Shown piece after piece: positions 7,413 to 26,380 of a DNA stretch of 39,311 nt. Source of the DNA: Miniimonas arenae (lineage in GTDB: Bacteria; Actinomycetota; Actinomycetes; Actinomycetales; Beutenbergiaceae); NCBI RefSeq assembly GCF_006351005.1, contig NZ_VENP01000030.1, forward strand, positions 1 through 39,311, given 5' to 3'. The number at the start of each line of letters is the position of its first letter. Positions within the stretch are counted from its first letter, which is position 1. Below the pieces are notes generated by a model. That model ran no database searches. It had not been told where the DNA came from and saw nothing but the letters and a program-made list of their open reading frames with translations. The translations under genes were made by a program, and so were the position numbers.

Positions 7413-7444
7413 GTCACCACACGGAGAGGAGGTGGTCCGAGCCA

Positions 7445-7483
7445 ATGAAGAACCTTCGGACGCGTGAGGTGGTCGCCCGCTAG
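7445..7483 (+). CDS. Candidate 12-residue ORF with very strong ribosome-binding site
   Basis: The ATG at 7445 opens a 12-codon frame reading MKNLRTREVVAR and closed by TAG. AGGAGGTGG at 7427-7435, 9 nt before the ATG, is almost perfectly complementary to the 3' end of 16S rRNA, and a promoter-like pair lies at 7383-7412. The peptide is basic and has no known match for me. It could be a genuine microprotein or a leader peptide, but no gene follows closely on the same strand except the oxidoreductase at 7669, which has its own promoter-like box. Its TAG shares a CTAG with the stop of a minus-strand small ORF. The strength of the initiation signals is the only support. Confidence 0.4.
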   Translation: MKNLRTREVVAR

Positions 7484-7605
7484 TCGGGGACCGCACAGGA
7501 CGGTTCGTCCTCGACCGCCGACCCGGCGAGCGAGAACCAGGCGATCACCGGAGCCCGCGGGAGTCGCGCCTCGTCCAGCGCGACGGCCGGTCGGTCCGCG
7601 ACCAC
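7480..7605 (-). CDS. Candidate small ORF, 41 aa
   Basis: A short frame with GTG at 7605 and TAG at 7480 has G or C in about four of five third positions. Its sequence looks protein-like (VVADRPAVALDEARLPRAP then VIAWFSLAGSAVEDEPSCAVPD). The frame stays open upstream into the antisense of the oxidoreductase gene, so the true start is not known and it could be the remnant C-terminus of a lost gene. There is no clear ribosome-binding site. The family is unknown. Confidence 0.25.
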   Translation of the reverse strand: MVADRPAVALDEARLPRAPVIAWFSLAGSAVEDEPSCAVPD

Positions 7606-7668
7606 CGGCAGCCCGCGGGCTCTTGCCTGTCCGGCTGCAGATCGGCGGCACGTGGCAGGCTGGTTCCC

Positions 7669-12237: not shown

Positions 12238-13605
12238 TCACTCGGTGCTGACCGTGAAGCCCTGCTCCTCGCCGTACTTCACGTTCGCGTCCTGCCACGC
12301 CACGAGGCCCTCGTTGAGGTCGGTGCGGTTGAGGTAGGACTGGCCGAGCGTCTCCGACACGATGCTGTTGGCGTAGGACTGCCAGGGCAGGTACTGCCAG
12401 CCGGTGCCGACGTTGTCGATGCCCTCGACGAGCACCTTGTTGATCTCCTGGCCGCCGAAGTAGTCGGAGGTGAAGCCGAGGAACTCGTCGGACTGGAGCT
12501 CGGCCACGGTCGCCGGGAAGCCGCCACCGCTGTTGAGGAACACGGAGATCGACTCGGGGTCGGAGTTCAGCCACCGCAGGAAGGCGGCGCCGAGCTCGGG
12601 GTTGGGGGCGCCCTTCGGCACGACCTCCGTGGAGCCGCCGTTCTCGGCGTTGGCGGGCGTGCCGTCATAGGTCGGCATGGGCGCCACGCGCCACTTGCCG
12701 GCGCCGTCGGGCGCGCTGTTCTCGAACACGCCCGGCATCCAGGCGCCCGTGGGCAGCGTGGCGATCGTGCCGTCGGACAGCGCGGCGAACCACTCGTCGG
12801 TCCAGCCGGGGATCTCGCAGTTGAGGCCGCCCTGGACGATCTTGTTCCAGGTGTCGGCCCAGAGCTTCGAGCCCTCGTCCTGGAGGTTGATCGTCACGTT
12901 CTCGCCGTCGACGGCGAACGGGCGGCCACCGGCCTGCCAGATCATCGAGGTGGTGAAGCCGGCGTCGCCGGAGTCGTTGACGATGCACGTGTCGGGATTC
13001 GCGGCCTTGATCGCCTCGCCCGCCGTGATGTACTCGTCCCACGTGGTGGGCACCTCGATGCCGAGGGACGTGAACACCTCCTCGTTGTAGAACAGCGCCA
13101 TCGGTCCGGAGTCCTGCGGGAGGCCCCAGATGCCGCCGTTCTGCGTGACCGCACCCCACGTGGAGGGGGTGTAGAGGTCCTCGAGGTCGGCGAAGCCGTA
13201 CTCGGTGAGGTCGGTGAGCGAGCCCGGGAGCTGGAACTGGGAGACCGACTGGTACTCCAGCTGCGCGACGTCGGGGATGCCCGAGCCGGCCGTGAGGGCG
13301 TTCTGCAGCTTGAGGTTGTGGTCCGCGGCGCCGCCGGTGTTGGTGACGTTGACCGTGACGTTCGGGTAGGCCTTCATGAACGCCGCGGCCTGCTCCTCGG
13401 CCTGCGGGGTCCAGGTCCAGTACTCGATCGTGCCGCCCTGCTCGAGCGCGGCGTCGAGCGCGTCGGAGCTGCCGCCGTCGGAGCCGCCTGCGGTCCCGTC
13501 GCCGGAGCCGGAGTCGGAGGAGCCGCCGGAGCAGGCGGCGAGGACGAGCCCGAGGGCGACCGCAGACGCGGTCACCGTGAGGACTCGGCGGGTGGAGCTG
13601 GCCAT
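12238..13605 (-). CDS. ABC transporter sugar-binding lipoprotein (family 1)
   Basis: A 455-residue extracellular solute-binding protein. The signal sequence MASSTRRVLTVTASAVALGLVLAAC ends in the lipobox LAAC, then a Gly/Ser/Asp linker, so the protein is anchored on the outer face of the membrane. The mature part starts with GTIEYWTWTPQAEEQAAAFMKAYPNVTVNV, the usual CUT1 binding-protein beginning, and includes IPDVAQLEYQSVSQFQLPGSLTDLT, GIWGLPQDSGPMALFYNEEVF and TIATLPTGAWMPG. It should bind an oligo- or monosaccharide and deliver it to the two permeases upstream. An AGGAAAGG precedes the ATG, which decides this start over an upstream in-frame one at 13671. It is last in the gene order, separated from the permease gene by 130 bp with a hairpin. 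Confidence 0.93.
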   Translation of the reverse strand: MASSTRRVLTVTASAVALGLVLAACSGGSSDSGSGDGTAGGSDGGSSDALDAALEQGGTIEYWTWTPQAEEQAAAFMKAYPNVTVNVTNTGGAADHNLKLQNALTAGSGIPDVAQLEYQSVSQFQLPGSLTDLTEYGFADLEDLYTPSTWGAVTQNGGIWGLPQDSGPMALFYNEEVFTSLGIEVPTTWDEYITAGEAIKAANPDTCIVNDSGDAGFTTSMIWQAGGRPFAVDGENVTINLQDEGSKLWADTWNKIVQGGLNCEIPGWTDEWFAALSDGTIATLPTGAWMPGVFENSAPDGAGKWRVAPMPTYDGTPANAENGGSTEVVPKGAPNPELGAAFLRWLNSDPESISVFLNSGGGFPATVAELQSDEFLGFTSDYFGGQEINKVLVEGIDNVGTGWQYLPWQSYANSIVSETLGQSYLNRTDLNEGLVAWQDANVKYGEEQGFTVSTE

Positions 13606-17645: not shown

Positions 17646-20853
<3,208 letters not shown>

Positions 20854-21348
20854 AACTGTGCCAATCCTTCGCGGACGCGAGTCACGTCCTGGTCGGTTCC
20901 GAGAAGCTCGAAGCGGTAGAGGTAGGGGACGCCGCACTTCGCGGCGACGATGTCGCCGGCGCGGCAGAAGGCCTCGCCGAAGTTCGTGTTGCCGGCCGCG
21001 ATCACCCCGCGCAGCAGGGCGCGGTTCCCCTCGTCGTTGAGGAAGGCGATCACCTGCCGGGGGACCGCGCCCCGCTCGCCGTTCCCGCCGCCGTACGTGG
21101 GCAGGAGGAGCACGTACTCCTCGTCCACGTGCAGCGGCGGGTCGGTCCGCCGGACCGGGATGCGGTGCGCCGGCAGGCCGAGCCGCTCGACGAACCGGTG
21201 CGTGTTCTCCGAGACCGAGGAGAAGTACACGAGACGTGCCATGTGCTCCTCCTCAGCGGTGCGCGGGACGATGACGAGGTGGGCCCTGCCGTGCGGTGTG
21301 GTGCGGGGGTGCCGTTGCCGAGAGCGGGTGCCGACGGCGACGCCGGGG

Positions 21349-21606
21349 TCAGGCCCCGACGACCTCCGCCGCCGGAACCGCGGCGGCGGCGAGCGCCTTG
21401 ATCTTGTCCGGGCGGAAGCCGGCCCAGTGGTCACCGTTGGCGAGCACGACCGGCGCCTGCTGGTAGCCGAGCGCCTTGACCGACTCGAGCGCCTCGGCGT
21501 CGATGCTGAGATCGACGACCTCGTAGCTCAGGCCGTGCTTGTCGAGCGCGCGGTACGTGGCCGAGCACTGGACGCAGTTCGGCTTGCTGAAGACGGTGAT
21601 GCTCAC
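21349..21606 (-). CDS. nrdH: NrdH-redoxin
   Basis: An 85-residue glutaredoxin-like protein that accepts electrons from thioredoxin reductase and reduces NrdE. The active site is Cys11-Val-Gln-Cys14 in [17 protein letters not shown]. The C-terminal half has [24 protein letters not shown], whose WAGFRPDKI segment is the NrdH hallmark. The start is a GTG at 21606 preceded by AGGGGAGAA. It is the first gene of the operon, and the leader of about 100 nt carries a long palindrome, with NrdR boxes at the promoter. Confidence 0.96.
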
Positions 21607-21656
21607 GTTCTCCCCTGACGCTCGGGCTTGGTTGCCGGTCTCGTTCTGACGTGCTC

Positions 21657-21676
21657 ACGCGTGTAGTTACACGCGT
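21657..21676. promoter_or_regulatory. Perfect 20-bp palindrome in the nrdH leader
   Basis: ACGCGTGTA-GT-TACACGCGT is a 9-2-9 perfect inverted repeat 51 bp upstream of nrdH and downstream of the predicted promoter. It could be an additional operator or an RNA hairpin in the 5' leader. Confidence 0.6.
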
Positions 21677-21714
21677 GTCGTTCGGGTCCGGGTGTGGTGC
21701 TGCCCGGGCTCTGA

Positions 21715-21762
21715 ACACTACACCTAGTGGTCGGAGGGGCCAGGCACCACCAGATGTCGTGT
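21715..21762. promoter_or_regulatory. Two NrdR boxes at the nrdHIEF promoter
   Basis: ACACTACACCTAGTGG (21715-21730) and CCACCAGATGTCGTGT (21747-21762) match 12 and 11 of the 16 positions of the NrdR consensus aCaCwAtATaTwGtGt as I recall it. They are spaced 32 bp apart, three helical turns, as is usual for NrdR box pairs. The proximal box contains a TAGTGT that can serve as the -10 element in the nrd direction. Confidence 0.75.
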
Positions 21763-22141
21763 CTCGGCGTGTCGGTGCTCGACGTCCGTCCACCCCTGTG
21801 CGAGGGCTCCACCCCCAGGCGTGTGGACAGTCCACGGCCCTCGGCACGCGGGACCGCGGGACCCGCACCACCGGGCCCGGAAGGGCGCCTCGACGCCGTC
21901 CACGGGCTGTGGACACAGATGTGGACCGCGTGTGCACCGCGCTCGGGACGACGCGGCCGGAGCCGCCCGCGACACTCCGCGAAGTCGTTCGCGACGCGCG
22001 CCGGCTCGGCGTGTCGCGCACCTCGAGAGGCGCCCGGGACCACGTCCCGGACCACCGGCACACCCCGCGGACCAGTCATGCACTCAGGTTCTCACCGACC
22101 ACTGACATCCGGCCCGGAGCGAGGGGCACGTGGGTGCGGCG
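21763..22141. other. Gene-free region upstream of nrdHIEF
   Basis: Frames here are open by composition only and none looks like a protein. The stretch holds three TGTGGACNN motifs (21822-21928) listed separately. Otherwise I see nothing defined. Confidence 0.5.
21822..21928. promoter_or_regulatory. DnaA-box-like cluster upstream of nrdHIEF
   Basis: TGTGGACAG (21822-21830), TGTGGACAC (21908-21916) and TGTGGACCG (21920-21928) are reverse complements of near-matches to the actinobacterial DnaA box TTGTCCACA (one to three mismatches). Two lie 12 bp apart. DnaA control of ribonucleotide reductase genes is known in enterobacteria; here it is only suggested. Confidence 0.35.
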
Positions 22142-25099: not shown

Positions 25100-26380
25100 T
25101 CAGTCTCGCACCGGGACCGGCGCCGGCCGCAGCACGGTGCGCGCGACCGTGAAGGCGCCGTTGTCGCCCATCACGCGGGTCGGTCCGACGAGCCGGCGCA
25201 GCGCGGCCGCGTGCGCCAGCCGCGAGTTGTACACCGTCCACAGCTCCCCGCCCGGTCGCAGCACGGTGCGGGCGTTCGCGAGGAGCCGCAGCGCGACGTC
25301 GGGCACCACGGCGCTGCCGACGTGGAACGGCGGGTTGCACACCACGAGGTCGACGCTCGCGGGCGGCAGGCCGCGCAGGCCGTCCGCGCGGCGGACCTCG
25401 ATCCGCGGCGCGAGGCCGTTGGCCGCGGCGGTGGCGCGCGCCGAGTCCACGGCCGCGGCCGAGACGTCGAGCGCGAGCACGCGCGCCTGCGGGCGGGAGC
25501 GGGCGAGCATCGCCGCGAGCACGCCCGTCCCGCAGCCGAGGTCCACCACGTCGACGGCGTCCGGCGCCATCTGCGGCACGAACTGCAGGAGGTAGCGCGT
25601 CCCGACGTCGAGCGCGGCGCCCGCGAACGCCGCACCGTGCGCGACGACGTCGAGGTCGAGCTCCGGCAGGCGCCGGGCGAGCGGGTACGTCCGAGCGGCC
25701 GCGGGGTGCGGTCCCCGCGCGCGCAGCACCCGGGCCTTGCCGTGCGCGAGCGACGCGCCGACCTCGGCGAACGAGCGCCCGAGCACCACGTTCTGGGTGC
25801 GCGTCATGTGCTTGACGCGGCCGCTGGCCAGGAGGAGCACGTCCGGCCCGGCCGCGGCGGCGGCGACCTGCGCGATCTCCTCGAGCGCCGCGAGCGAGCG
25901 CGGCAGGGCGACGAGGACCAGCCGGGCGCCGGCCACGAGCGCCGGCTCGAGGCCGTGGTGCGCGACGACGTCGCCGCGCTCGTCCGCGAGCGCGACGCCG
26001 AGCCGGCCCGCGTTCGCCACCAGCGCCTGCTCGGACAGCAGCGAGTCCTGGTGCACGCGCACGCGGGGCGGCCGGATCCCCACGGCGCCGGTCAGCAGCC
26101 CGAGCGTGAGCGCGCCGTAGTGGTCGCCGACCACCACGACGTCCGACGCCGTGAGGCCGCCCGGTGCGGCGGCCAGCGCCGCGAGCGGGCCGGCCGCCTC
26201 GACGAGGAGCAGCCGGTCGGCGGCGTCGACGGCCACGAGGTCGGGCGCCTCGACGTCGGGCCAGCGTCGCAGTGCGGTGAGGTCCGCGTGCCCGACGGCG
26301 AGCGCGCCGTCCGCGGCGTCGTCACCTACGCCGTCGCGCGCCTCGGCGGGGTCACGGGCGTCTCGCGGCTGGTCCGGCAC
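25100..26380 (-). CDS. RsmC/RlmG-like rRNA guanine-N2 methyltransferase
   Basis: A 426-residue two-domain protein. The C-terminal half is a class I SAM methyltransferase with motif I DLGCGTG at 280-286, ALDVSAAAVDSARATAAANG, and the catalytic NPPFH at 349-353. This is the N/D-P-P-F/Y motif of base N-methyltransferases and is specifically of the RsmC/RlmG form (CNPPFHVG). The N-terminal half is a degenerate methyltransferase-like domain, also as in RlmG/RsmC. It probably methylates a guanine of 16S or 23S rRNA, but which one cannot be decided. The start is GTG at 26380; it is divergent from the hexuronate regulator gene. Confidence 0.87.
   Translation of the reverse strand: MPDQPRDARDPAEARDGVGDDAADGALAVGHADLTALRRWPDVEAPDLVAVDAADRLLLVEAAGPLAALAAAPGGLTASDVVVVGDHYGALTLGLLTGAVGIRPPRVRVHQDSLLSEQALVANAGRLGVALADERGDVVAHHGLEPALVAGARLVLVALPRSLAALEEIAQVAAAAAGPDVLLLASGRVKHMTRTQNVVLGRSFAEVGASLAHGKARVLRARGPHPAAARTYPLARRLPELDLDVVAHGAAFAGAALDVGTRYLLQFVPQMAPDAVDVVDLGCGTGVLAAMLARSRPQARVLALDVSAAAVDSARATAAANGLAPRIEVRRADGLRGLPPASVDLVVCNPPFHVGSAVVPDVALRLLANARTVLRPGGELWTVYNSRLAHAAALRRLVGPTRVMGDNGAFTVARTVLRPAPVPVRD

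What the first reader, a model, noticed from the sequence alone, without database searches (positions are those of the whole stretch)
21657..21928. Layered nrd control region: NrdR pair, long palindrome and DnaA-like motifs
Two NrdR boxes in 32-bp phase explain dATP/ATP control. A 20-bp perfect palindrome in the leader and three TGTGGAC motifs upstream are not explained by NrdR. Coupling of dNTP supply to replication initiation through DnaA would be a notable addition in an actinobacterium.
Basis: partly seen in the sequence, partly recalled or inferred. Interest (0 to 1): 0.55.

Follow-up and report, generated by a model that had tools for sequence, protein, structure and literature searches.

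The report
Cell-cycle regulator operator at RNR promoter
The palindrome in front of this bacterium's ribonucleotide reductase genes is most likely part of a docking site for McdR, a cell-cycle regulator, kept at set distances from the NrdR sites in the actinobacteria examined, so supply of DNA building blocks may be wired to cell division.

Summary
The described features are real: a NrdR box pair 32 bp apart, a 22-bp interrupted palindrome and three TGTGGAC motifs. The palindrome itself is not conserved (arms of 7 bp or more in 4 of 24 family loci), but an overlapping element is: GAAYnACA-N4-TGTnRTTC (21683-21664). It equals the published operator of the actinobacterial MerR-type regulator McdR/ResR (AATnACAnnnnTGTnATT, PMC9040748). 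Within 3 mismatches it stands upstream of nrdH in 104 of 105 actinobacterial loci, in one of two zones phased to NrdR box 2: -51 to -48 (70 loci) or +45 to +69, in the leader (37 loci; 3 have both). Other spacer lengths and shuffles do not show this. The genome encodes McdR and carries the same dyad before whiB, a proven mycobacterial target, and beside crgA and a DUF3263/NapA gene. CGACACGC, the published WhiB2 motif, is also strongly enriched. DnaA-box cores occur in 24 of 24 family loci but only 8 of 81 others. So the palindrome points to McdR; DnaA is a plausible extra layer limited mainly to this family. All binding is inferred from sequence; nrd is not mentioned in the main texts of the two McdR papers searched, whose supplements I could not see.

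The parts
21362..21606 (-). nrdH (glutaredoxin-like NrdH), first gene of nrdHIEF
   Evidence: NCBIfam TIGR02194 111 bits, cut-off 85.75; Pfam Glutaredoxin
20823..21242 (-). nrdI (start at MARLVYF inferred)
   Evidence: Pfam Flavodoxin_NdrI 155.6 bits on the longer frame 21434-20823
18676..20937 (-). nrdE, class Ib RNR large subunit (start uncertain; overlaps nrdI as read)
   Evidence: translation; relatives 74-92% identical over nearly the whole length in the family and beyond
17646..18623 (-). nrdF, class Ib RNR small subunit
   Evidence: Pfam Ribonuc_red_sm 323.8 bits; TIGR04171 NrdF 489.8 bits
21747..21762 (-). NrdR box 1, ACACGACATCTGGTGG
21715..21730 (-). NrdR box 2, CCACTAGGTGTAGTGT; contains the presumed -10 TAGTGT (21720-21715)
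   Evidence: -10 role inferred (TAnnnT), sigma-70 scan found none
21664..21683 (-). McdR/ResR-type dyad GAACGACA-CGCG-TGTAACTA in the leader (2 mismatches to GAAYNACAN4TGTNRTTC, both in the right arm)
   Evidence: motif from PMC9040748
21656..21677 (.). the reported palindrome CACGCGTGTA-GT-TACACGCGTG; overlaps the dyad but its axis lies 7 bp away
   Evidence: not conserved as a palindrome
21767..21774 (-). CGACACGC, published WhiB2 motif, next to NrdR box 1
   Evidence: motif from PMC9040748
21673..21680 (-). CGACACGC inside the McdR-type dyad
22009..22016 (-). third upstream CGACACGC
21822..21829 (-). DnaA-box-like CTGTCCACA core
21908..21915 (-). DnaA-box-like GTGTCCACA core
21920..21926 (+). 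TGTGGAC, weaker DnaA-like motif (GGTCCACA on the other strand)

Best explanation
The region is a composite operator. NrdR acts through two boxes one integral number of turns apart, box 2 covering the presumed -10. The palindrome marks a dyad bound by the MerR-type cell-cycle regulator McdR/ResR, here about +26 to +45 of the leader, where a bound dimer would most simply repress (block RNA polymerase or help NrdR close the promoter). In other lineages the same dyad abuts NrdR box 1 instead, where it could compete or cooperate with NrdR. WhiB2 (with WhiA) would act at CGACACGC, and in this family DnaA at the upstream box cluster. dNTP supply would thus answer both to dATP/ATP and to the McdR-WhiB2 division switch. 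Shown: motif presence, spacing rule, conservation, phasing, presence of the regulators' genes. Inferred: binding, start site, sign of regulation.
For: (1) Dyad with N4 spacer at 3 mismatches or fewer within 400 bp: 24 of 24 family loci, 80 of 81 other actinobacterial loci; spacers N2, N3, N5, N6 give 7, 12, 5, 5 of 81; five shuffles 1-6 of 81; reversed pattern 1 of 81. The paper reports that changing the spacer length abolishes McdR action at whiB2. (2) 104 of 105 loci place it in one of two zones relative to NrdR box 2, -51/-50/-49/-48 or +45-48/55-60/69; of 120 sites in 450 bp, 109 lie in these zones. (3) A matrix trained only on the family's leaders scores above all 20 shuffles in 66 of 81 held-out actinobacterial loci, 0 of 4 Agrobacterium-type loci. 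(4) Own genome: 7 sites at 2 mismatches or fewer, reversed control 0: upstream of a WhiB gene closest to Streptomyces WhiB, beside crgA/rhomboid, between a DUF3263/NapA gene and ung, beside an NlpC/P60 gene, nrd, plus one inside secE and one unassigned. whiB2 and the Rv0430 (DUF3263) homologue MSMEG_0833 are McdR DIP-seq targets in M. smegmatis. (5) McdR orthologue at G000:C65:36162-36776 beside the DUF151 gene; strong orthologues (E 1e-60 or better) in 34 of 34 actinobacterial genomes, 63% identical in Mycobacterium with garA-ftsR-DUF151-mcdR order. (6) Own mcdR promoter carries CGACACGC, the published feedback motif. (7) NrdR, WhiA, DnaA genes present.
Against: No binding or expression data. 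The window's site has 2 mismatches, both in the right arm; in the family the arm usually ends TTA, not TTC. 15 of 81 held-out loci do not exceed their shuffles with the matrix; 1 locus (L046) has 4 mismatches; 1 of 4 Agrobacterium-type loci has a chance site at 3 mismatches. The 24 family loci suggested the element and the 81 were seen by eye before the dyad was fixed; loci are related, so counts are not independent. The two McdR papers searched do not mention nrd in the main text, and the M. smegmatis DIP-seq reports only five peaks, named targets whiB2, MSMEG_0833, MSMEG_5468.
Confidence: 0.7

Rival explanations
1. DnaA is the main extra regulator, coupling dNTP synthesis to replication initiation; the palindrome is incidental.
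For: T[GA]TCCACA in 24 of 24 family loci (31 sites; shuffles mean 1.0 loci, max 4) and exact TTGTCCACA in 13 of 24 (shuffles mean 0.12, max 1); about 0.05 exact sites expected from the genome-wide density of 472 in 104.5 Mb. The only TGTCCACA pair within 100 bp in the own genome is here. E. coli nrdAB is a known DnaA target (PMC8203912, passages).
Against: Only 8 of 81 loci outside the family have the core, while the McdR-type dyad is in 80 of 81. The 13 exact boxes come from four genera. It does not explain the dyad. Most likely an added layer, not an alternative.
Confidence: 0.45
2. The palindrome acts as an RNA hairpin in the leader (attenuation, stability or translation).
For: The leader folds with a 9-bp hairpin there.
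Against: Energy is not unusual (z -1.65, 12 of 200 shuffles as good); arms of 7 bp or more exist in only 4 of 24 family loci; in 67 of 105 loci the element lies only upstream of the promoter, where it is not transcribed with nrdH.
Confidence: 0.04
3. Another protein binds the same dyad: FtsR (the neighbouring MerR regulator), a third NrdR site, or an unknown factor.
For: Identity of the binder rests on motif match and genome content only.
Against: FtsR's published motif is AACCCTAAAGTAAAGGTTGAGGGTA (PMC6683498, passages), unlike the dyad. NrdR boxes have a different dyad, and the element also stands at genes outside nrd. The same dyad at whiB and DUF3263, McdR's proven targets, favours McdR.
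Confidence: 0.2
4. Chance palindrome without function.
For: The exact palindrome is unique to this genome among those searched.
Against: The overlapping dyad is conserved and phased.
Confidence: 0.05

Closest known systems
McdR/ResR (Rv1830) operator at mycobacterial whiB2 (PMC9040748)
   Same: Same dyad AATnACAnnnnTGTnATT with fixed 4-bp spacer; near the start site; orthologous regulator encoded in the genome; same dyad before this genome's whiB
   Different: Target is the class Ib RNR operon; site is inside the leader and phased with NrdR boxes; two mismatches; binding not shown
NrdR box pair of bacterial RNR operons (PMC12051234)
   Same: Two boxes, 16-bp gap, 32-bp repeat, over the presumed -10
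   Different: Nothing unusual in the pair; here abutted or followed by a second operator
WhiB2/WhiA cGACACGc sites (PMC9040748)
   Same: CGACACGC enriched upstream of nrdH and present at own mcdR and whiB
   Different: nrd not named as a target in that main text
DnaA control of E. coli nrdAB (PMC8203912)
   Same: Several DnaA-box cores upstream of an RNR promoter
   Different: Class Ib operon, actinobacterial box type (TTGTCCACA), conserved mainly in one family, binding untested

Membership tests
NrdR-regulated RNR promoter | two NrdR boxes about three turns apart near the promoter, nrdR gene present | tested here: met
   32 bp; 97 of 105 loci at 32, 7 at 31, 1 at 28, by best match within 26-39; NrdR TIGR00244 153.6 bits
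McdR/ResR operator | dyad AATnACA-N4-TGTnATT, spacer exactly 4 | tested here: met
   met within the published tolerance of up to 3 mismatches (rplN): window 2 mismatches; 104 of 105 loci at 3 or fewer in phased zones
McdR/ResR operator | McdR encoded in the genome | tested here: met
   G000:C65:36162-36776; 62% identical to the mycobacterial orthologue, HTH nearly invariant
McdR/ResR operator | McdR binds the site | not testable with these tools
   needs EMSA/ChIP
WhiB2/WhiA target | cGACACGc upstream of the promoter | tested here: met
   24 of 24 and 60 of 81 loci; shuffles mean 2.4 and 5.3; reversed word 2 and 3; binding not tested
DnaA-regulated promoter | DnaA boxes (TTGTCCACA) above chance | tested here: inconclusive
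   window has one-mismatch boxes only; family 24 of 24 core, 13 of 24 exact; 8 of 81 outside
DnaA-regulated promoter | DnaA binds and changes expression | not testable with these tools
   needs footprint and reporter
PafBC (DNA-damage) promoter | tTGTCRgtg-N8-TAnnnT | tested here: not met
   absent in the window; 3 of 24 family loci, 51 of 105 in all

The most novel reading that the evidence does not exclude
nrdHIE(F) is an ancient core target of the McdR-WhiB2 cell-cycle switch across Actinobacteria: a NrdR-McdR composite operator in which the McdR dyad is locked in helical phase to the NrdR pair and has moved as a unit from directly upstream of box 1 (-51) to the leader (+46/+58/+69) in some lineages, possibly changing its sign, with DnaA boxes added in this family. 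This would tie dNTP supply directly to the regulator linked to division arrest and antibiotic resilience in mycobacteria.
Probability: 0.5. Interest if true: 0.75.

Novelty: new variant of a known kind. Interest (0 to 1): 0.6.

Why it matters
How actinobacteria match dNTP synthesis to replication and division is poorly known. A conserved, phased McdR site beside the NrdR boxes gives a specific and cheap test, and would make ribonucleotide reductase a direct target of an essential actinobacteria-specific regulator. It also gives an evolutionary puzzle: one operator, two fixed positions around the same promoter.

Tried and rejected
Exact palindrome as a regulon site: unique in the genome. RNA hairpin: weak and not conserved. 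Rfam: only Ms_IGR-5 at 7419-7628. A regulator gene next to nrd: none among the flanking frames scanned, the LacI gene at 26151 is beside sugar genes. DUF3263/NapA as the binder (my idea, from its own-promoter site): dropped when the McdR paper named that gene's homologue as an McdR target. FtsR: other motif. WhiA alone by GACAC: the shorter word GACAC is less clear (family 128 found, reversed word 135). A first DNA alignment used a wrong orientation and was discarded. One search's arm lengths were not used for L014-L018, where the script's anchor did not match; one search was used instead.

Papers: PMC9040748, abstract, outline, sections 6 and 10, passages; PMC10336103, PMC6683498, PMC5656591, PMC8203912, PMC12051234 and PMC11804915, passages only; others, search listings. 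That nrd is not linked to McdR in print rests (20 of 81 rows listed); supplements and non-open papers were not seen. That ResR and Rv1830 had a further clinical study is recalled.

Full report
Observation. All three features are there: NrdR boxes 21762-21747 and 21730-21715, palindrome 21656-21677 (10-bp arms, 2-bp centre), TGTGGAC at 21822, 21908, 21920. The operon is class Ib nrdHIEF, read leftward.

The palindrome. It is unique in the genome, and among the 24 loci of the window's own family (f1; its name is not given) only 4 have a palindrome with arms of 7 bp or more there. What is conserved is an overlapping element. The pattern GAAYSACA-N4-TGTARYTACA at up to 1 mismatch hits 22 of 39 genomes (21 of 24 of the family; not G001, G002, G004), and each of the 23 rows lies within about 1 kb upstream of that genome's nrdE as placed; reversed control 0. 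A matrix trained only on the 24 family leaders then picks out, in 66 of 81 other actinobacterial loci, a site above all 20 shuffles of the same DNA (0 of 4 Agrobacterium-type loci), often in the opposite orientation, which revealed the symmetric dyad GAAYnACA-N4-TGTnRTTC.

Dyad statistics. At 3 mismatches or fewer in 400 bp: 24 of 24 family and 80 of 81 other loci; spacers N2/N3/N5/N6: 1/3/1/0 of 24 and 7/12/5/5 of 81; shuffles 0-2 of 24 and 1-6 of 81; reversed pattern 0 and 1; Agrobacterium-type 1 of 4. Position relative to NrdR box 2 is quantised: 70 loci at -51 to -48, 37 at +45 to +69 (mainly +46, +58), three of these at both; L046 has none at this threshold, though a 4-mismatch site at +46. 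The steps +46, +58, +69 are about one helical turn. In the upstream type the dyad abuts NrdR box 1; in the leader type it lies about 30 bp past box 2.

Who binds. The published McdR (Rv1830, also ResR) motif is AATnACAnnnnTGTnATT, with loss of action on changing arms or spacer length, and targets whiB2, MSMEG_0833 (homologue of Rv0430, the DUF3263/NapA gene) and MSMEG_5468; McdR tolerates up to 3 mismatches (rplN) and is said to be exclusive to actinobacteria. Searching GAAYNACA-N4-TGNNNTTC exactly in 24 genomes gave 36 places in 22 (none in G005, G064), 21 of them matching on both strands, against 4 reversed-control matches. Among 20 fetched stretches, those I could read include DUF3263 genes (L148, L150, L166, L167) and rhomboid/crgA (L149, L153, L157, L159, L162, L163); others were nrd, jag or unassigned. 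In the own genome at 2 mismatches or fewer there are 7 sites, reversed control 0: DUF3263|ung, crgA|rhomboid, whiB promoter (WhiB Pfam, nearest to Streptomyces WhiB 138 bits against 68 for WhiB1), NlpC/P60|Cys_Met_Meta_PP, nrd, inside secE (likely chance), and one unassigned. McdR itself is at C65:36162-36776 beside DUF151; E 1e-60 or better in 34 of 34 actinobacterial genomes, only a weak hit (E 1.3e-4) or none in the two Agrobacterium-type genomes. The mycobacterial orthologue sits in gcvH-garA-ftsR-DUF151-mcdR order (gene names by my reading, ftsR by NCBIfam in G005).

WhiB2. CGACACGC, published as the WhiB2 motif, is upstream of nrdH in 24 of 24 family and 60 of 81 other loci (shuffles mean 2.4 and 5.3, max 5 and 10; reversed word 2 and 3), and at own mcdR and whiB. 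In the window it occurs at 21774-21767, 22016-22009 and inside the dyad at 21680-21673.

DnaA. T[GA]TCCACA is in 24 of 24 family loci (31 sites; shuffles mean 1.0, max 4) and TTGTCCACA in 13 of 24 (mean 0.12, max 1) with shifting position and strand; the genome-wide density would give 0.05. Outside the family 8 of 81. The own oriC region holds TTGTCCACA on both sides of dnaA. So DnaA coupling is credible for this family, not for the group.

Mechanism. Inferred: start near 21709, dyad at about +26 to +45. McdR represses whiB2 from a site around its start site, so repression is the simplest reading here; McdR overproduction in M. smegmatis lowers division genes and raises replication and repair genes, so the upstream-type arrangement might even activate. 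NrdR binding depends on helical phase (abstract passage), and the phased McdR site suggests contact or competition.

Novelty. nrd has 0 occurrences in the two McdR main texts, and nrdH and nrdE are 0 in the four listed papers that hold Rv1830, ResR or McdR (20 of 81 rows shown). Supplements were not readable. Known parts, new combination and target: a new variant of a known kind.

Noticed in passing
nrdH upstream regions of 51 of 105 actinobacterial loci, e.g. L050, L032; 3 of 24 in the window's family: TGTCRG-N10-TAnnnT, matching the published PafBC/P1 DNA-damage promoter (tTGTCRgtg-N8-TAnnnT, PMC5656591), in 46 loci overlapping NrdR box 2; spacers 7-9 and 11-13 give 0. The window lacks it.
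   Followed up: partly
G000:C104:13354-13373 and 13395-13402 (L149): The McdR-type dyad between crgA and a rhomboid gene lies 21 bp from a TGTCCACA DnaA core.
   Followed up: no
G000:C70 upstream of dnaA (L124): CGACACGC stands shortly before the TTGTCCACA box upstream of dnaA.
   Followed up: no
L062, L079, L105: A second, better dyad lies at -144 from NrdR box 2, far upstream.
   Followed up: no
window 7419-7628, + strand: Rfam match to actinobacterial sRNA Ms_IGR-5, 53.3 bits.
   Followed up: no
L091, L097, L098, L110: Agrobacterium-type genomes hold an nrdE about 78% identical to the actinobacterial one, without the McdR-type element in phase.
   Followed up: no
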